NCBI GenBank assembly: GCA_027016315.1
Contig: JALWAP010000053.1
Location: 1 to 40,750, forward strand
DNA: 40,750 nucleotides
Direction of reading: 5' to 3'
From: Anaerolineae bacterium
Lineage (GTDB): Bacteria > Chloroflexota > Anaerolineae > S016-19
The notes beneath the pieces were generated by a model. It saw only the letters and a program-made list of their open reading frames with translations, did no database searches and was not told the origin of the DNA. This document shows positions 30,776-40,750 of this stretch, piece by piece. Numbering within the stretch: position 1 is the stretch's first letter; each line of letters begins with the position of its first letter. The position numbers and the translations under genes are program-made.

Positions 30776-32263
30776 TCATCCTAAAATGTCGGCAACCTCC
30801 CGCAATACCTCCTCACGTTCCACATCCGTCACCAAAGGAGCCTGCGCCGGTGCCTCACGGATGATCGACCGTATCTCCAAAAGCTCACGCTTGATATCGG
30901 CATTCCCCTCCAGCTCCCTCGCAATTTTCTGACATGCGTATTTCACCGTGGCGTGGCTCCGCCCGCCGAGCAGTTCACCTATTCTCGTAAGCCTCAATCC
31001 CATATCCTCCCGGAGAATGTACATGGCCATCTGGCGCGCCTTGGATACGGAAGCTCGCCTCGACTTGCCCTCGATCTCCCCCACCGGCACACCGTAGAAA
31101 TCGGAGACGGCAGATAGGACTGCCCCTGGCTGCATGGAGCGCCGCGACATGCCGTCAACGAAAGGAGCAATCGCCCGCTGCACAATCTCCATGGTGATCT
31201 CCTGCCGCAGGAATTTGGCATGCGCCACCACGTAGTTCACAACTCCGGAAAGCTCCCGTATCCCGGTTATCGGCGCTTCAGCAATCGCTGTGAGCACGTG
31301 CTTGCCCACGTCCACCGAATGTCTGGAAAACAGGTGCTCGAGCAACTCTGCCCGTTCCGCCGCGTTCGGAGCATTTATGTAAACAGTCAACCCTCCGCTC
31401 AGCATGGACGAAAGAGCTTCGTCGAGTCCAACGGTTTCATAAGGATGGTACAAGCTGGAAGCAATGACCAGACCCCCCTGCTCCGCTATCGAATTCACCG
31501 TGTGGAAGAACTCTTCCTGACTGCTCTCCTTCCCCGCCAGAAAATGCAGGTCGTCTGCTATCAGGACATCCAACTCCCTGAAACGCTTGCGAAACTCGCC
31601 AGTCTGCTTTTTTCGAATAGCGAGGATCAGCTGATTTGTAAACCCTTCTGCAGTTATGTACAGTGAATTGACTCCTGCGTCGGTCAAGAAGCCATGAGCA
31701 GAGCGCAATAGCGTCGTCTTGCCCAACCCGACGCCGCCGTAGATCACCAAGGGGTTGTAGGGGCTTGGCTGTCTCGTCGCTGCAAATTCCTTTACGACGG
31801 TTGTCAGCGACGCAAACGCCATCCTGTTGAAATCGGAGACGACGATATCTGAAAAGTGCCGGGCAGCCTCCGGTTTGGCGCTTTTGGCACCTACTGAAAG
31901 CAAGGGCACATCGTAATCGGGCTGCTCCTTCTGCTGAGATTTTTCCCCGGTGGAAACGACATACCTCACTTCTACCTGCCGGTGAGCTACTTCCGTCAAA
32001 ACCCGATGAATCCTTCTATGAAGCTTGCTCTCGAGCCATCCTTTCGTGTAAGCGTTAGGAACGCCTATGATGAACAGGCCATCTTCCTCACCCAGAAGGT
32101 ACGCATCGCCGAGCCACGTATCGAACGTGGCCCTCGGAAGTTGGACCTGGAGCTTACCAAGAGCACGTTTCCAAATTTCGGCAGAGTTCAATCTGTTCTC
32201 CATGACCGCATTGACGTTAAGAACGCGCAAATGATGCCTTCCGCCCAGCCAGTCGAGCAGCAC
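30776..32263 (-). CDS. dnaA: Chromosomal replication initiator DnaA
   Basis: NPLVIYGGVGLGKTTLLRS Walker A, VLIADDLHFLAGKESSQEEFFHT Walker B, GGRSHATVKYACQKIAREL domain IV; GTG start after ggaggggg, or ATG at 32203. Confidence 0.93.
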   Translation of the reverse strand: MLLDWLGGRHHLRVLNVNAVMENRLNSAEIWKRALGKLQVQLPRATFDTWLGDAYLLGEEDGLFIIGVPNAYTKGWLESKLHRRIHRVLTEVAHRQVEVRYVVSTGEKSQQKEQPDYDVPLLSVGAKSAKPEAARHFSDIVVSDFNRMAFASLTTVVKEFAATRQPSPYNPLVIYGGVGLGKTTLLRSAHGFLTDAGVNSLYITAEGFTNQLILAIRKKQTGEFRKRFRELDVLIADDLHFLAGKESSQEEFFHTVNSIAEQGGLVIASSLYHPYETVGLDEALSSMLSGGLTVYINAPNAAERAELLEHLFSRHSVDVGKHVLTAIAEAPITGIRELSGVVNYVVAHAKFLRQEITMEIVQRAIAPFVDGMSRRSMQPGAVLSAVSDFYGVPVGEIEGKSRRASVSKARQMAMYILREDMGLRLTRIGELLGGRSHATVKYACQKIARELEGNADIKRELLEIRSIIREAPAQAPLVTDVEREEVLREVADILG

Positions 32264-32682: not shown

Positions 32683-32775
<93 letters not shown>

Positions 32776-32794
32776 AAGGTTGGCAACGGAACAC

Positions 32795-32886
<92 letters not shown>

Positions 32887-32893
32887 CCTACAA

Positions 32894-32966
32894 GCCCCAG
32901 TAGCTCAGTGGATAGAGCGCCTCCCTGCGGAGGAGGAGGTCACAGGTTCAAATCCTGTCTGGGGTA
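32894..32966 (+). tRNA. tRNA-Arg (anticodon GCG)
   Basis: 73-nt cloverleaf: GCCCCAG acceptor, CCTCC-CTGCGGA-GGAGG anticodon arm, A20 and C35 arginine identity positions, ACAGG-TTCAAAT-CCTGT T arm. Confidence 0.9.
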
Positions 32967-32970
32967 CCTG

Positions 32971-32995
32971 AAGGCCGGGCCAGACCCGGCCTTTT
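32971..32995 (+). terminator. Rho-independent terminator of the tRNA cluster
   Basis: AAGGCCGGGccagaCCCGGCCTTTT. Confidence 0.9.
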
Positions 32996-33009
32996 CATTT
33001 TTCCTCTAG

Positions 33010-33303
33010 TGGGCTGTCAAGCATATTTCAGTTGGTGGCGGATAGGAGAGGCGATGTTTCGCCCTTTTCAAGGCAAATGACTTCATTACCTGTCACACGC
33101 TTTCAGTCATTCTGAGGAGCGTCAGCGACGAAGAATCTTGAGCGCTCTTTTGCCGAACGCCCCTGGCTTATCCAGAGTGTTGCAAGATTCTTCGCCTCGG
33201 CATCGAGCTCAGCGCTGCTGAGCTCTACTGCCTCGGCTCAGAATGACGCATAGTGTCCCTGGGCACGAGAGACATTGCTCACAATCTCTCGCTCGACAAG
33301 CCA
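33010..33303. repeat. 294-bp MITE-like element, copy 2 (inverted relative to copy 1)
   Basis: Starts TGGGCTGTCAAGC, ends GACAAGCCA; reverse complement closely matches 2562-2855. Confidence 0.8.
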
Positions 33304-34927: not shown

Positions 34928-37900
34928 TTACTCAATTTTTTCTACTCCCATCTGCCGGAGAGTTTCTTCCACTTTGTCCTTGTACTCTTGCTCGCTTATT
35001 TGTCCATCGGACACCTGGATTGTTACCTCCAAACGGTTGAACTTAGCCTGAAGGAAGTACAATAGCCCCAACAGGTCAGACACCTTGCCCTTGGGCACCA
35101 CGAGCCTTAAGTGGAAACTACTCAATACCGGTGAAAGCCCCCCGGAAACGAACTTCCCAGGCTCCTCTTCGATTTGCTTCTCGTCTTGTTCACGTTGTTT
35201 GTCAATCGTGCCTTCAGTGATCGGAGAAAGCGTATCGAACTCCCTCCTTTGTGCTTCGCATATCTCGTCCTTGATTATTATTTCACCTTCGATAAGAGCA
35301 ACCATCGGGGACTCCTTGAACGATTGGCAGCGGATTTCCCCATCTTCCAATACCCCAAGGCCGAACAACCCTCGCCGTACACCTTGGGCGATGCTATCGC
35401 GCCAGGCATCCTCACTAACGACGCGCAATGCGCCAGGTGTGCGCGACCAGCTTCGAGCCAGTTGGGCCGTGGAGACATATGCCTGGTCACGCAGGTAGCT
35501 TTCTTTTAAAACCAAGGGCTCCAGCCGTTCCAGAATTTCGTTGTTGGTGCGCAGAATCTCATAAACCTGTTCATCCAAGGGGGTATCCATTCCGTAAGTT
35601 CCCATCCCCATATCCAGCTCGCGCAGGTCGCCCCCCTGTGCTGGGATGTAAACGAACCGGTAGGCGTTACGCACCTGATCGGTGACGTCGTGTTCCAGTT
35701 TGACGAGACGCTCTCGGACATCCTTGCGCTGTTCTGCATTCAGGCGAAGGGTAGTGTCCCGCTCAATAGAACGCAACGCGGCATATCGACGCAGTAGCCG
35801 CTGTAGGGCTAAGTGCTCGTGCTCCATCGGGGCCAGGAAGAACAAAGTGTTCCGATGCACGCGCGGTGTTTGGCCTTTTTTCTCAAGGAACCGACGCATC
35901 TTCTGCTGGTCGCGTTGGCGGAAAATCAGCAATTTGAGTTCCGGCGTGTCCGCGATGTCATTCTCACTCTCCGGCCAAATATAAACCTTGAATTGACGTC
36001 CGCTCACGCGACGCCTAAGCCGTTCCTGCTCCAGGTTAGCGATTTCCTCAGGTTGAACGTTCTCTTCTCGCATCAACAAAATGCGGTTTAGGTTAGGCTG
36101 ATTGGAAAAGTAAACTTTGCCGTCGGACTGCTGGAGATAGAACAACCGCGTTTTGAGATGCTCCAGGGCTTCGGCCACCACACTGGAGGGGTTCTGGAGG
36201 GTAGTGGCATGGCGTTTGATTTCGCCCAATGTGGCGCCCCGCTCGGTGCCCCCGGAGAAGGAGTACAGGAAGACCGTGGTGGCCACGCGCGTGCCCAGGT
36301 GCAGCCAACGGTACGCGTCGCCCAGTTCCTGATCTACCTTGTGTGCCCCCGCTGTAGCGTCGGTGATGTCGGCAGCGATCACGCTGTCGAATTCAGGACC
36401 GATGTGCTTAAGCAACTCACGGCGAATCTCCGAATCGGCTAGGTCGAAGTCGGCCAGGGTGATGTAGGGCAAGTTGCGCTCCCGCAGGCCGTAAACCACC
36501 AGTGAAAGCAAACGCAACACGCCCCGGGTGCGCTGAAAGGACGTGAAACTGCCCCAACGGTGGTAGAGCACGTCAATGGCGTCGGGCAAGAAGGGGTAGG
36601 AAGCCAGGAAACGATCCCGATACTCGCTGGGCTCCATGCCCGGTGGGAGAAGATTTTCCTTCTCCGCGTAGCGAAGAAATTGCTTCACGATCTGGCGGGC
36701 CGCGGTCTCGTCCACGCGGCTGAACAGGCGGCGACGTATAACGGGGCTGATTTCGTGTTCCTGGACCGGGGTGTAAATCTTCTCCATGCGGCCAAGCACT
36801 TTCTGCATCTGCTGGAAGAGGCGCTCGGCGTTTTCGTCGTAGCGTTCCAGGAGGCTGGAGGGTAGGGTGACCACCAGGCAGGCGCGCTCTAAGGTATCGA
36901 CGGTTTCGGTGAGTTCCTGGAGGAACGCTTGAGTCTGGGCGGCCAGGTTGCTACGACCGACGGTAACGCCTGCTGCTTTAATGGCGTACTCGAGCACTTC
37001 GTCCATGAGAATAAGGACCGGTTGGTGTGCGGCCAACAGCGAGCGCAAGGCTTCTCGACCGGGCGCAGTCTGACCTTTGAAGCCGGACCGCGTGCCAGTC
37101 AACTGCTCGGCCATCACGCCCCACAGGGTATCCTTGTTGGCGTCTAGTACGGTGCCCACAAGCACGACAGTGCGCGCGTTCCACTCGCGCGCCTTGTGAT
37201 ACATGGCGATGAGCGCGTGGGTCTTGCCGCCGCCGAAGGGAGTCTGCACCTGGATGACAGGATCGCCGCCCCCGCCGCTCAAGCGCTTTTCGACCACGGC
37301 AAGCAGGTTGGTCAGGCCTTCGGTGGGATAGGTTTTCTGGAAGAAGCGGGCGGGATCCTGGTACTCGTCCGGCGCCCGACCTTGAAACACTTCCCACAAG
37401 TCTGCAGCGAACACGTCCATGGTCAGACGGCCTTCCAAGATATCGTCATGGGGAATGGCAATGGTGTGGAAGGCTCGCACCACATCGCCGGGCTGTTCCT
37501 GTCTCTCGGTGACGATTTTGCGAGCGTCCTTCAAAGCAGGCCAGCGGTTCTGGATGTACTTCACGGTCTCCCGTGTGTTCAGAGGACGCGTGGTGGTTTG
37601 GACGCGAATGTAAAATTCCTCCCCTTTGGCCCCTTTGAGGAAAACGGGATCCGAGGCAGGTCGCACCTCGATGACATAGACGAGTTTACCATCTACTTCC
37701 TCAAAGCGTCCCTGGATTAGGGGAGCGTACTGGGCACCCAGATGGTCGCTGAGCAAGCTGGCCACGAGCTGTTCGAAGCGGTCGCGCGAGTTCTTCACCA
37801 AGGCCAGGTCTGCGTCAAGGCCCAAGACATTCCCATCGTCTTCGACGCCGATGATCAGGGTGCCGCCGTCGGTATTGAGGAAGGCAGCGATGGTCTTCAG

Positions 37901-38014
37901 TACCTGGTGTCGGAGAGCGGTGTTCTGCTTGTCCTGCCGCACATCCCATTGCAGGCTGCTCTTAAATTCTACAGTCTGGCTTTCGCCGCCGGCGATCAGA
38001 TCTTTGATGTTCAT
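34928..38014 (-). CDS. DUF499-type ATPase with N-terminal AlbA_2 (Schlafen-like) domain
   Basis: N-term VEFKSSLQWDVRQ...GGTLIIGVEDDGNVLGL (AlbA_2); IQVQTPFGGGKTHALIAMYHKA Walker A; VLILMDEVLEYAI Walker B. Confidence 0.85.
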   Translation of the reverse strand: MNIKDLIAGGESQTVEFKSSLQWDVRQDKQNTALRHQVLKTIAAFLNTDGGTLIIGVEDDGNVLGLDADLALVKNSRDRFEQLVASLLSDHLGAQYAPLIQGRFEEVDGKLVYVIEVRPASDPVFLKGAKGEEFYIRVQTTTRPLNTRETVKYIQNRWPALKDARKIVTERQEQPGDVVRAFHTIAIPHDDILEGRLTMDVFAADLWEVFQGRAPDEYQDPARFFQKTYPTEGLTNLLAVVEKRLSGGGGDPVIQVQTPFGGGKTHALIAMYHKAREWNARTVVLVGTVLDANKDTLWGVMAEQLTGTRSGFKGQTAPGREALRSLLAAHQPVLILMDEVLEYAIKAAGVTVGRSNLAAQTQAFLQELTETVDTLERACLVVTLPSSLLERYDENAERLFQQMQKVLGRMEKIYTPVQEHEISPVIRRRLFSRVDETAARQIVKQFLRYAEKENLLPPGMEPSEYRDRFLASYPFLPDAIDVLYHRWGSFTSFQRTRGVLRLLSLVVYGLRERNLPYITLADFDLADSEIRRELLKHIGPEFDSVIAADITDATAGAHKVDQELGDAYRWLHLGTRVATTVFLYSFSGGTERGATLGEIKRHATTLQNPSSVVAEALEHLKTRLFYLQQSDGKVYFSNQPNLNRILLMREENVQPEEIANLEQERLRRRVSGRQFKVYIWPESENDIADTPELKLLIFRQRDQQKMRRFLEKKGQTPRVHRNTLFFLAPMEHEHLALQRLLRRYAALRSIERDTTLRLNAEQRKDVRERLVKLEHDVTDQVRNAYRFVYIPAQGGDLRELDMGMGTYGMDTPLDEQVYEILRTNNEILERLEPLVLKESYLRDQAYVSTAQLARSWSRTPGALRVVSEDAWRDSIAQGVRRGLFGLGVLEDGEIRCQSFKESPMVALIEGEIIIKDEICEAQRREFDTLSPITEGTIDKQREQDEKQIEEEPGKFVSGGLSPVLSSFHLRLVVPKGKVSDLLGLLYFLQAKFNRLEVTIQVSDGQISEQEYKDKVEETLRQMGVEKIE

Positions 38015-38029
38015 GGACTAATCCTCCCC

Positions 38030-40135
38030 TTACGTCCAGTTCATCTGAATGTATTCCACTGTCTGCTCTGGATCCAGGGCCCGTGAGGTAGTGCGCACCC
38101 GAATGTAGAATTCCTTTCCCTTTGGCCCCTTGATGAAGACTGGTTCCGGCGCCTTTTCTACCTCGACCACATACACCAGTTTGCCGTCCACTTCCTCAAA
38201 TCGTCCCCGAATCAGGTGATTGTACTGAGGACCAATTGCTTCCGAGATGAGGTTGGCCAGGAGTTGTTCGAAGCGATCCTGGGAGTTTTGAACAAGGGCC
38301 AGGTCCTGCTCCAAGCCATAGATGTTTCCGTCATCTTCCACCCCGATGATGAGCGTGCCACCTTCTGTGTTGAGAAAAGCGGCAATTGTTTTCAAAACAG
38401 TGTGACGTAGGGCTGTATTTACCTGCCTCTGGCGCACGTCCCATTGAAGGGTGCTCTTGAATTCGACGAAGGGGCTCTCTCCCATTTCAATGAGATCTTT
38501 TACCGGGCGCAGTCGAGTTTCCTCCCGCTTTACCAACAAGCTCCCCAGGAAGTCGTTCAACTTCTTGGCGATCAAGGCCCGCCGGGCTTCCAGGAACTCC
38601 TCATAACGCTCTACTTTCCACAGTTCGGGATTTTTGGGAATGAACTGCTTGTCCAAAGCTCCCGGGAATCGTTCCTCAACTTCGAACAGGTATTCTTCAG
38701 GGCGACGGTTGCTCAATCGCTGGTTGGTCGATGCCGTCAGAAAAGCCCGGTTAGCAATCTCGTTTACTTTCTTCCTATCCAGGTGATTCCCGGGCTCGTA
38801 TAGCTCCTTGTACAGAAGATCTTGAGGGAAAATGTGGTGGCTGTGAATGTAATAGCGGTTCTTTGGAGTGCGGGCTAAAGGCATACCGTTGAACCAATCT
38901 ACAGCGCCAAGGGCTTTGGCCAGGATGAACGTCATCCGGTAAAGCGGATGTTGTGCTCCGCGGCCTACGAAGTCCGCTGGACGAACCTCCACCCTCCCTC
39001 GCTGATCGACGATCTGGATGCGGAGTTCCTCCCAAGGAGACGTTTCTCGCACTACAATGCTCACATCATGCTCAAGGCGTTGATCGGTCTGCCCCGTGTA
39101 GCGGGCCCAGATATGTGCGTTGTACAACCAGTGGATTGCATCCTGAAGGGTCCGCTCATCAGGGAATGTACCACCGTTCAGGGAAAGGTACACGACGATA
39201 GGGATTAGAACGTTGGTGGTATTTAGATCTTCCGTGGAGTGTATATATGCTCGACCAGGCAACAACGCAACCAGGTAGTCGAGCAAGTCAGAAAGCAAAT
39301 TCCAGCCTTTGACAAGCTCTTCGCGTGGCGTGTGGTGGATAGTCTCGAAAAGTGCCCGGCGCACGACGACCCCTGTAAGCGCACGAGTCATGAAGGTGAG
39401 ATCGAAATAAAAATGTCGATCACCCAGCGACGAAATCTTGGCTTTCATCTCCCTGCGTGCAGCAGGCCATTTGCCTGTTACATGGGTCAAAGCGAGTTCG
39501 GCGTCGGTCAGCTTGGTTCCCTGACTGTTCACTCGGTCGAAGATGTCAATAGCTTCGTCTAACCCTGCTTGAGAGGGCACGATTTGCACCGGGAGATCGA
39601 TGTTACGAATTTGCCGAAGACGCTCCAGATTTTCACTATACCGCTCGGCCAACTCTATGACCTGTGCATCATCCTCTGCCTGTTCTCTGGCGATTCCAAA
39701 GACGCTGATTTTTTTCGTGAAGGCATCTACCACCCGTATCCATAGGGGGTTGTCTTGCATCTTGGAGGCCTGGTAATACTGAAATTCGCCCGTTTGCAAG
39801 TTGAAATAGAGTTCCCGGGGATCGGTATGGATGTCCTCATCAGTGTAGAAAGGGGGAATCTCGCCGGTAAGAAGCATGTAAAGAGTGGTCAACCGCTGCT
39901 GTCCATCCAAAATGATAGATACGGTACCCATCTCTGGATCGTAGGTTGCAGTGTTCTTGAGTTCAGGCGGGTGGGTCGTTTTCCAGAAGAGCAGCGCGCC
40001 GATGGGGTATTCTCTGAACAAAGATACCATCAACTGCTTTGCCTGCTCGCGGCTCCATACATACTCCCGCTGAAACTCGGGAAGCACCAAGTCCCTGTTA
40101 CGAATATCAGTAACGAGTTCAGCGATTTTCGTCAT
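38030..40135 (-). CDS. DUF262 (GmrSD-N-like) protein with HNH-like motif and C-terminal AlbA_2 domain
   Basis: RDLVLPEFQREYVWSREQAKQLMVSLFREYPIGALLFW, ILDGQQRLTTLYMLL; HSHHIFPQDLLY...N; C-term VEFKSTLQWDVRQ...GGTLIIGVEDDGNIYGL. Confidence 0.88.
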   Translation of the reverse strand: MTKIAELVTDIRNRDLVLPEFQREYVWSREQAKQLMVSLFREYPIGALLFWKTTHPPELKNTATYDPEMGTVSIILDGQQRLTTLYMLLTGEIPPFYTDEDIHTDPRELYFNLQTGEFQYYQASKMQDNPLWIRVVDAFTKKISVFGIAREQAEDDAQVIELAERYSENLERLRQIRNIDLPVQIVPSQAGLDEAIDIFDRVNSQGTKLTDAELALTHVTGKWPAARREMKAKISSLGDRHFYFDLTFMTRALTGVVVRRALFETIHHTPREELVKGWNLLSDLLDYLVALLPGRAYIHSTEDLNTTNVLIPIVVYLSLNGGTFPDERTLQDAIHWLYNAHIWARYTGQTDQRLEHDVSIVVRETSPWEELRIQIVDQRGRVEVRPADFVGRGAQHPLYRMTFILAKALGAVDWFNGMPLARTPKNRYYIHSHHIFPQDLLYKELYEPGNHLDRKKVNEIANRAFLTASTNQRLSNRRPEEYLFEVEERFPGALDKQFIPKNPELWKVERYEEFLEARRALIAKKLNDFLGSLLVKREETRLRPVKDLIEMGESPFVEFKSTLQWDVRQRQVNTALRHTVLKTIAAFLNTEGGTLIIGVEDDGNIYGLEQDLALVQNSQDRFEQLLANLISEAIGPQYNHLIRGRFEEVDGKLVYVVEVEKAPEPVFIKGPKGKEFYIRVRTTSRALDPEQTVEYIQMNWT

Positions 40136-40150
40136 AGCAATACCTCCAGT

Positions 40151-40750
40151 TTAAATATCATCGAACAGCACTTCCCGCCATTCCCTAACGGCTCGGCGCA
40201 CGCGCTCGCGACCGGCCAGGAAGCCATCCAGCAGCTTCTTCTCCTTGCTGGTGATAGGCAATGTCTCTGAAATGGCCTGGGCGACTCGGTAGAAGGCCTC
40301 ATTGGCCCCGTAACCCGTGACCGAAAGCAAGTTTACCATCTTCTCCTGTTCCCCGGCTTCCCAGTAGCGCAACGCCAGGTGCAGCACGTTGATCAGTTCC
40401 CGCGAGTCTTTCTCCATGTCCTCCACTTTGCGCTGGTGGGGACCCAGAACGCGCACGAACTCCCGCTCTTTCTTGATGAAGGTGCCGCGGCGGTTCCACT
40501 CCTGGGCCAGGTCGATGCCGCAGGACTGGGCCAGTTTGCGGGCCTCGTCGAAGGGCGCGCGGGCTTCGCCGAAGTTCCAGCGCCAGAGGACGTAGAAGCG
40601 GGTGAGGGGGTCGATCTCGCCCGCGAAGCCGTTGTGCAGGATCTGGCGCACCGCGAAGTCGGTGGCCAGGGTGCGTACCTCCTCCAGCAGGCGGTCGGCG
40701 CGGATGATGTTGCCCTCGTAGTCCATGATTTTCTCGTACTTGCCGAAGAC
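40151..40750 (-). CDS. C-terminal part of a DUF1156-like adenine-specific DNA methylase (5' end outside window)
   Basis: Open to the window edge: VFGKYEKIMDYEGNIIRADRLLEEVRTLATDFAVRQIL...; resembles the C-terminus of DUF1156 proteins and adjoins DUF499. Confidence 0.65.
   Translation of the reverse strand, partial: VFGKYEKIMDYEGNIIRADRLLEEVRTLATDFAVRQILHNGFAGEIDPLTRFYVLWRWNFGEARAPFDEARKLAQSCGIDLAQEWNRRGTFIKKEREFVRVLGPHQRKVEDMEKDSRELINVLHLALRYWEAGEQEKMVNLLSVTGYGANEAFYRVAQAISETLPITSKEKKLLDGFLAGRERVRRAVREWREVLFDDI

What the first reader, a model, noticed from the sequence alone, without database searches (positions are those of the whole stretch)
34928..40750. Defence-type operon: DUF1156 methylase, DUF262-HNH-AlbA_2, AlbA_2-DUF499 ATPase
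DUF1156 methylases with DUF499 ATPases are established partners in predicted anti-phage systems (helicase-methylase-ATPase/Hma-like sets, by recollection). DUF262 is related to GmrSD-type modification-dependent nucleases. Seen: all three are adjacent and co-directional with very short gaps, and the DUF262 member carries an HNH-like HSHHIFPQ motif plus an AlbA_2 domain. Inference: a composite methylation-based defence system in which the DUF262-HNH protein is a nuclease effector. More genes (helicase, PLD nuclease) probably lie beyond the right edge.
Basis: partly seen in the sequence, partly recalled or inferred. Interest (0 to 1): 0.72.

Follow-up and report, generated by a model that had tools for sequence, protein, structure and literature searches.

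The report
Hma defence locus with paired Schlafen domains
This is a known kind of bacterial anti-virus system (helicase, DNA methylase and ATPase), but its ATPase and an inserted DNA-cutting enzyme both carry the same Schlafen-type domain, a family known for cutting transfer RNA, in places where a different RNA-cutting domain (HEPN) usually sits.

Summary
Window 34928-40750 holds three minus-strand genes: the 3' part of a methylase, DUF262-HNH-AlbA_2 (701 aa) and AlbA_2-DUF499 (1028 aa). The window is a whole contig of a Chloroflexota MAG. Contig C184 overlaps its right end (876 bp, 95.8%) and completes the operon: SNF2 helicase with NOV_C nuclease (HmaA), SoFic-like Fic, DUF1156 methylase (HmaB). 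So this is a Hma system, which the 2026 BREX survey calls a Type-1 DUF499-centred BREX-related system. The DUF262-HNH gene is a BrxU-like embedded effector (PADLOC HEC-05). That much is known biology.

The unusual part is AlbA_2 (a Schlafen lobe). AlbA_2-DUF499 occurs in six other Anaerolineae loci and nowhere else I sampled; usual DUF499 proteins carry HEPN or nothing there. One of the six (L092) also has DUF262-HNH-AlbA_2 directly upstream, on a different DUF499 lineage, so the module moves. Both copies keep the SLFN13 catalytic E/E/D residues. Swt1-like HEPN occupies the same two slots in relatives.

Best reading: a Hma/BR system whose HEPN-type RNase arm is replaced by Schlafen. RNase activity and any pairing of the lobes are inferred, not shown.

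The parts
40151..40750 (-). 3' part of the DUF1156 adenine methylase gene (HmaB); the rest is on contig C184 (L003 277-3165, minus strand)
   Evidence: Open at the contig end; C184 overlap 95.8% over window 39875-40750; full protein has DUF1156 and HmaB matches
38030..40135 (-). DUF262-HNH-AlbA_2 gene, 701 aa; BrxU/GmrSD-like embedded effector (HEC-05)
   Evidence: Pfam, PADLOC, PDB sequence and fold matches
39488..40126 (-). DUF262 / GmrSD_N domain (residues 4-216) with FQRE and DGQQR motifs
   Evidence: Pfam 4.3e-33; motifs
38825..38845 (-). HNH motif HSHHIFP (residues 431-437)
   Evidence: Motif; second histidine pair H433/H434 invariant in 20 relatives
38075..38479 (-). AlbA_2 (Schlafen lobe) at the C-terminus of the DUF262-HNH protein; E553, E558, D601 match the SLFN13 catalytic triad
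   Evidence: Pfam; conservation; alignment to 5yd0
38015..38029 (-). 15-nt spacer between the two genes with a GGAGG ribosome-binding-type sequence; the two genes are in one reading frame
   Evidence: Sequence
34928..38014 (-). AlbA_2-DUF499 gene, 1028 aa; core ATPase (HmaC)
   Evidence: Pfam and PADLOC HmaC 405 bits
37577..37984 (-). AlbA_2 (Schlafen lobe) at the N-terminus of DUF499; E11, E16, D59 match the SLFN13 catalytic triad; sits where other DUF499 proteins carry HEPN
   Evidence: Pfam; HEPN in relatives
35504..37129 (-). DUF499 region matched by Pfam (residues 296-837); Walker A at 37217-37243 lies just upstream, Walker B LILMDE at 36998-37015 inside
   Evidence: Pfam; motifs

Best explanation
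The locus is a complete Hma (Type-1 DUF499-centred BREX-related) restriction-like system, transcribed helicase-nuclease, Fic, DUF1156 methylase, DUF262-HNH-AlbA_2, AlbA_2-DUF499. Inferred working, by analogy with the published model for these systems: the methylase marks self DNA; the DUF499 ATPase with its variable C-terminus scans for and recognises unmarked invader DNA; the SNF2 helicase with its NOV_C nuclease degrades it; the BrxU-like DUF262-HNH protein, inserted between methylase and ATPase, adds modification-dependent DNA cutting against phages whose modified DNA evades the core. What sets this lineage apart (shown by sequence) is an AlbA_2 Schlafen lobe on both the ATPase and the inserted nuclease, at the two slots where relatives carry a Swt1-like HEPN RNase. 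I infer that AlbA_2 does the same job as HEPN: an RNA-cutting (tRNA-type) last-resort arm, switched on through the ATPase and NTPase domains it is fused to.
For: Operon and families. Same order Hel-Fic-MTase-AlbA_2-DUF499 on one contig in L095. AlbA_2-DUF499 in six other loci. SLFN13 triad E205/E210/D248 (PMC5862951) conserved in both copies and invariant in the sampled set. Fold match to SLFN13 and to the SAMD9 tRNase domain. HEPN_Swt1 at the same slot on DUF499 (L074, E 3e-39) and a weaker HEPN match with RNAxxH motif at the same slot on DUF262-HNH (L049-L052); PMC3710099 lists HEPN fused to both partners. Purifying selection on both copies. Published BR model and HEPN as suicide effector: PMC12839542.
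Against: No biochemical evidence for this family; AlbA_2 domains can also be plain nucleic-acid binders. Each protein has one lobe, whereas SLFN13 uses two. The HEPN match on DUF262-HNH is below Pfam's cut-off. The operon is joined across two contigs that differ by 4%. Target of the DUF262-HNH part is inferred from BrxU/GmrSD only.
Confidence: 0.55

Rival explanations
1. The two AlbA_2 domains are matched docking lobes: the C-terminal lobe of the DUF262-HNH nuclease pairs with the N-terminal lobe of DUF499, so the inserted nuclease is physically coupled to the ATPase, perhaps rebuilding a two-lobed Schlafen RNase across two proteins.
For: The copies are 71% identical to each other, more than the nuclease's copy is to free-standing relatives (61% at best); both lie in one clade (65/89) with the other DUF499 lobes. 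L092 carries the same pair on another DUF499 lineage. SLFN13 is a two-lobed pseudo-dimer with one active site.
Against: L089 and L095 have AlbA_2-DUF499 with no second AlbA_2 in the operon, and L044, L045 and L206 have the reverse, so pairing cannot be obligatory. The tandem model is low-confidence (pTM 0.42) and does not reproduce the Schlafen arrangement. The clade support is weak and the alternative is not rejected.
Confidence: 0.2
2. DUF262-HNH-AlbA_2 is an independent passenger: a self-sufficient type IV-like restriction gene that happens to sit in the Hma operon, with no functional link to the ATPase's AlbA_2.
For: It is free-standing in most genomes where it was found and absent from most AlbA_2-DUF499 loci. 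Hma-embedded GmrSD-like proteins HEC-05 and HEC-06 are reported to work independently (PMC11411939).
Against: In both loci where the gene is embedded beside AlbA_2-DUF499, its lobe is unusually similar to that ATPase lobe, and gene order is tight and conserved.
Confidence: 0.35
3. AlbA_2 here is a non-catalytic nucleic-acid-binding or sensor module that helps both proteins load on phage nucleic acid.
For: The fold also matches a SAMD9 structure solved with DNA (7ksp), and Schlafen-type domains bind DNA as well as RNA.
Against: The three catalytic acidic residues are invariant in all 13 domains compared, and the domain interchanges with an RNase domain at both slots.
Confidence: 0.2
4. Assembly artefact: a chimeric or duplicated contig created the AlbA_2-DUF499 fusion.
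For: MAG with 306 contigs and 5.9% contamination; the operon is split over two contigs that are 96% alike where they overlap.
Against: Six other MAG loci show the same fusion, one of them with the same neighbour; the two copies differ by 29% at the protein level, so neither is a mis-assembled duplicate; gene order is matched by L095.
Confidence: 0.03

Closest known systems
Hma system (HmaA-HmaB-HmaC), called Type-1 DUF499-centred BREX-related (BR) system in PMC12839542
   Same: SNF2 helicase with C-terminal nuclease-type domain, DUF1156 methylase and DUF499 ATPase in one operon; no DUF3780, PLD or PglZ among the five genes
   Different: AlbA_2 instead of HEPN (or nothing) at the DUF499 N-terminus; embedded Fic and DUF262-HNH-AlbA_2
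BrxU / HEC-05 (GmrSD-family type IV restriction enzyme)
   Same: DUF262 NTPase domain plus HNH; embedded in a BREX-related operon; best PDB match by sequence and fold
   Different: About 21% identity over the structural alignment; extra C-terminal AlbA_2 lobe; substrate untested
HEPN-DUF499 ATPases (Ava_2192 type) and HEPN-DUF262-HNH proteins (VNG7073 type), PMC3710099
   Same: Same two partner proteins with an RNase domain fused at the DUF499 N-terminus and to DUF262-HNH
   Different: Schlafen AlbA_2 fold instead of HEPN
Schlafen RNases (SLFN13, SLFN14) and the SAMD9 tRNase domain
   Same: Fold of one lobe and the E/E/D catalytic residues
   Different: One lobe per protein; two lobes exist only across the two adjacent genes
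Schlafen genes linked to BREX/BR loci (PMC12839542)
   Same: Schlafen-type RNase domain associated with a BR system
   Different: There described as separate genes fused to a minimal histidine kinase and wHTH, not as part of the ATPase or the GmrSD-like nuclease

Membership tests
Hma / Type-1 BR system | HmaA (SNF2 helicase), HmaB (DUF1156 methylase) and HmaC (DUF499 ATPase) together in one operon | tested here: met
   PADLOC 719, 467 and 405 bits; adjacency across the C53/C184 join is inferred, supported by L095
Hma / Type-1 BR system | Helicase carries a C-terminal PD-(D/E)XK nuclease domain | tested here: met
   NOV_C/DUF3883 at 999-1088, 5e-24, with EVK at 1044; activity not tested
Hma / Type-1 BR system | No DUF3780 or PLD helicase (Type-2) and no PglZ (Type-3) in the locus | tested here: met
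   Pfam scan of all five genes
HEPN-DUF499 subgroup of Type-1 BR | N-terminal HEPN on DUF499 | tested here: not met
   AlbA_2, not HEPN, at residues 11-146; relatives such as L074 have HEPN_Swt1 at 11-123
GmrSD / BrxU (HEC-05) | DUF262 domain followed by an HNH (DUF1524-type) domain in one protein | tested here: met
   GmrSD_N 4e-33, HSHHIFP and DGQQR motifs, BrxU fold match 1e-15; the Pfam GmrSD_C match is below its cut-off
GmrSD / BrxU (HEC-05) | Cuts modified phage DNA | not testable with these tools
   Needs protein and phage assays
Schlafen RNase | Catalytic E/E/D triad of SLFN13 | tested here: met
   E11/E16/D59 and E553/E558/D601
Schlafen RNase | Two AlbA_2-like lobes forming one U-shaped core | tested here: inconclusive
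   One lobe per protein; tandem model low-confidence
Schlafen RNase | Cleaves tRNA | not testable with these tools
   Needs biochemistry

The most novel reading that the evidence does not exclude
A split Schlafen enzyme: two matched AlbA_2 lobes, one on the inserted type IV-like nuclease and one on the core ATPase, assemble into a two-lobed tRNA-cutting Schlafen core and tie the embedded effector to its host system; lobe and partner gene move together between DUF499 lineages as a plug-in.
Probability: 0.15. Interest if true: 0.75.

Novelty: new variant of a known kind. Interest (0 to 1): 0.45.

Why it matters
It suggests that the RNase arm of DUF499 systems is a replaceable module: Swt1-like HEPN and Schlafen AlbA_2, two unrelated folds, occupy the same two positions. 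It offers a concrete case of how a gene embedded inside a defence operon may become coupled to its host system through a shared domain, and it places a Schlafen-type domain on the core ATPase of a BREX-related system.

Tried and rejected
(1) PLD nuclease beyond the right edge: not there; the extension shows methylase, Fic and helicase-NOV_C. (2) AlbA_2-DUF499 as a single old fusion inherited with its DUF499 core: the DUF499 tree rejects one clade for the fused proteins (quick tree, p-AU 3e-97, at least 3 changes; one very long branch, L065, was left in). (3) The nuclease's AlbA_2 descending from the ATPase's, or the reverse: suggestive, not shown (52/74 and 65/89 support; the alternative is not rejected, p-AU 0.475). 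A first test with eight DUF262 rows (p 0.006) included L205, which falls elsewhere in the tree, so I do not rely on it. (4) Docked tandem lobes by AlphaFold (in-frame stops read as Gly only to make one chain): low confidence, no conclusion. (5) Whether HEPN on the nuclease is matched by HEPN on a neighbouring DUF499: five HEPN-type DUF262-HNH proteins were found, but none of the regions fetched showed a DUF499 match, so it could not be tested. (6) AlbA_2-DUF499 on plasmids or viral contigs: none of 171 plasmid records has a place covering 80% of the query, and none of 36 viral loci covers the AlbA_2 part. (7) The ~125-bp repeats on both sides of the locus as island ends: they are a dispersed family of about 20 copies, so not diagnostic.
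Full report
What is there. The window is a complete contig (G000:C53, 40,750 bp) of a 2.45-Mb, 306-contig MAG. I infer Chloroflexota, probably Anaerolineae: genomes listed as 'same phylum' include DUF499 loci practically identical to named Roseiflexus ones, and the other AlbA_2-DUF499 loci are named Anaerolineae. The 701-aa protein has DUF262/GmrSD_N and C-terminal SLFN_AlbA_2; the 1028-aa protein has N-terminal SLFN_AlbA_2 and DUF499.

Past the right edge. Contig C184 (24.9 kb) overlaps window 39875-40750 at 95.8% identity without gaps and continues the operon. In transcription order it is: SNF2 helicase with C-terminal NOV_C (1119 aa, HmaA 719 bits; L003 4437-7796), Fic (422 aa, SoFic 418 bits, HPFLDGNGR and an SxxxEG inhibitory-type motif; L003 3162-4430), DUF1156 methylase (962 aa, HmaB 467 bits; L003 277-3165), then DUF262-HNH-AlbA_2 and AlbA_2-DUF499 (HmaC 405 bits). 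The overlap shows strain-level variation under purifying selection (dN/dS 0.07-0.16). The join is an inference, but L095, an independent Anaerolineales contig, has the same order Hel-Fic-MTase-AlbA_2-DUF499 on one piece.

Known frame. The set meets the definition of Hma and of the Type-1 DUF499-centred BREX-related system (PMC12839542). GmrSD-like genes embedded in Hma clusters are known as HEC-05 (equated with BrxU) and HEC-06 (PMC11411939); the window protein hits HEC-05 at 173 bits and matches BrxU structures from a confident model (mean pLDDT 88.2). Up to here the locus is a new member of a known kind.

The unusual feature. AlbA_2 sits on both the ATPase and the embedded nuclease, and the two copies are 71% identical. 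The N-terminus of DUF499 is where 1370 Type-1 BR taxa are reported to have HEPN. The DUF499 query matched 92 of 400 Chloroflexota genomes, and no other AlbA_2-DUF499 protein was seen in the 30 loci I annotated. None of 171 plasmid records has a place covering 80% of the query, and none of 36 viral-contig loci covers the AlbA_2 part. In the genome-wide scan, 7 of the 79 closest loci matched the query from its first residues on; annotation shows six AlbA_2-DUF499 loci, all Anaerolineae MAGs: L089, L091, L092, L093, L095 and L119 (the last broken in frame). The seventh, L105, has an unfused DUF499 with a separate weak AlbA_2 match in the next gene.

Movement of the module. L092 has a DUF262-HNH-AlbA_2 gene directly upstream of its AlbA_2-DUF499, 88% (HNH part) and 81-82% (AlbA_2) identical to the window's. 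Its DUF499 core, however, is nearest L112, which has no AlbA_2 (67-82% along the core), and falls to 37-54% identity with the window over the C-terminal half; L112's contig begins at its DUF499 gene, so what lies upstream of it is unknown, but L061, the next nearest, is complete and unfused. The DUF499 tree rejects a single clade of AlbA_2-bearing proteins, while the AlbA_2 domain tree keeps the L092, L089 and window copies together (95/92). So AlbA_2, and in two loci its partner gene, has moved between DUF499 lineages. In L092, L093 and L095 a methionine at the place of the start of unfused DUF499 relatives lies at the junction, as expected if AlbA_2 was joined in front of a complete DUF499 gene. 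Relatives carry other cargo between methylase and DUF499: a REP-associated transposase-like protein (my reading of the sequence; L089, L090, L119) and a pair including a gamma-glutamylcyclotransferase-like protein (my reading; L096, L208).

Which lobe came first. DUF262-HNH-AlbA_2 occurs free-standing in Chloroflexota, haloarchaea and Sinorhizobium, and inside a different Hma arrangement without AlbA_2 on DUF499 (L044, L045, L206). That breadth makes it the likely donor. The AlbA_2 tree is compatible with this but does not settle it.

What AlbA_2 probably does. A profile of these domains matches SLFN8/13, SLFN5, SLFN11, SLFN14 and SLFN12 in the PDB, and the model matches SLFN13 and the SAMD9 tRNase domain. 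The residues whose mutation diminishes SLFN13 activity (PMC5862951) correspond to E11/E16/D59 and E553/E558/D601; this mapping is mine, from the printed alignment to 5yd0. They are invariant in the set. DUF262-HNH relatives L049-L052 have a C-terminal HEPN-like domain with an RNAxxH-type motif where the window protein has AlbA_2, and DUF499 relative L074 has Swt1-like HEPN where the window protein has AlbA_2. The HEPN match on the nuclease is below Pfam's cut-off (E 3e-3 to 4e-4); PMC3710099 independently lists HEPN fused to DUF262-HNH and to DUF499. Interchange at both slots is the best argument that AlbA_2 is a functional substitute for a HEPN RNase. It remains an inference.

Lobe pairing. 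SLFN13 has two lobes in one chain, with the active site in one (PMC5862951). Two lobes on adjacent gene products invite a split-Schlafen model. Against it as a general rule: L089 and L095 have only one AlbA_2 in the operon, and the tandem model did not dock (pTM 0.42; the alignment was shallow, so this is weak evidence either way).

Novelty. I found no description of AlbA_2-DUF499 or of DUF262-HNH-AlbA_2 in the texts I could search; supplements and subscription papers were not available, and the proteins themselves may well be in public databases. I rate it a new variant of a known kind.

Noticed in passing
window 32990-33130 and 2735-2862; L003 8053-8162: Members of a dispersed ~125-bp repeat family with about 20 copies in this genome (76-94% identity); copies lie on both sides of the defence locus.
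   Followed up: partly
window 32683-32968: Cluster of three tRNA genes (Ser-TGA, Ser-GCT, Arg-GCG) about 2 kb from the 3' end of the defence operon, next to dnaA (30776-32263): a plausible island insertion site.
   Followed up: no
L089 4378-6267 and 9289-10014: This relative of the locus has an OLD-type ATPase (PADLOC HEC-01A, 144 bits) where the window locus has Fic, and a REP-associated transposase-like gene where the window has DUF262-HNH: the same two embedding slots with other cargo.
   Followed up: partly
L044, L045, L206: A second Hma arrangement (helicase, DUF262-HNH-AlbA_2, methylase, DUF499 without AlbA_2) in other Chloroflexota.
   Followed up: partly
L049, L050, L051, L052, L274: DUF262-HNH proteins with a C-terminal HEPN-like domain in place of AlbA_2.
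   Followed up: partly
window 38015-38029 and L092 940-981: In both loci the DUF262-HNH-AlbA_2 and AlbA_2-DUF499 genes are in the same reading frame, separated only by stop codons; may be chance or a trace of tandem duplication.
   Followed up: no
L003 8551-16255: The far side of the defence operon on C184 looks like a phosphate regulon (response regulator, sensor kinase, Pst transporter and PhoU-like proteins), read from the sequences only.
   Followed up: no
L168 (halophilic archaeon DL31 plasmid phalar01): A DUF262-HNH-AlbA_2 gene 6 kb from a DUF1156 methylase gene: another possible link to a BR system.
   Followed up: no
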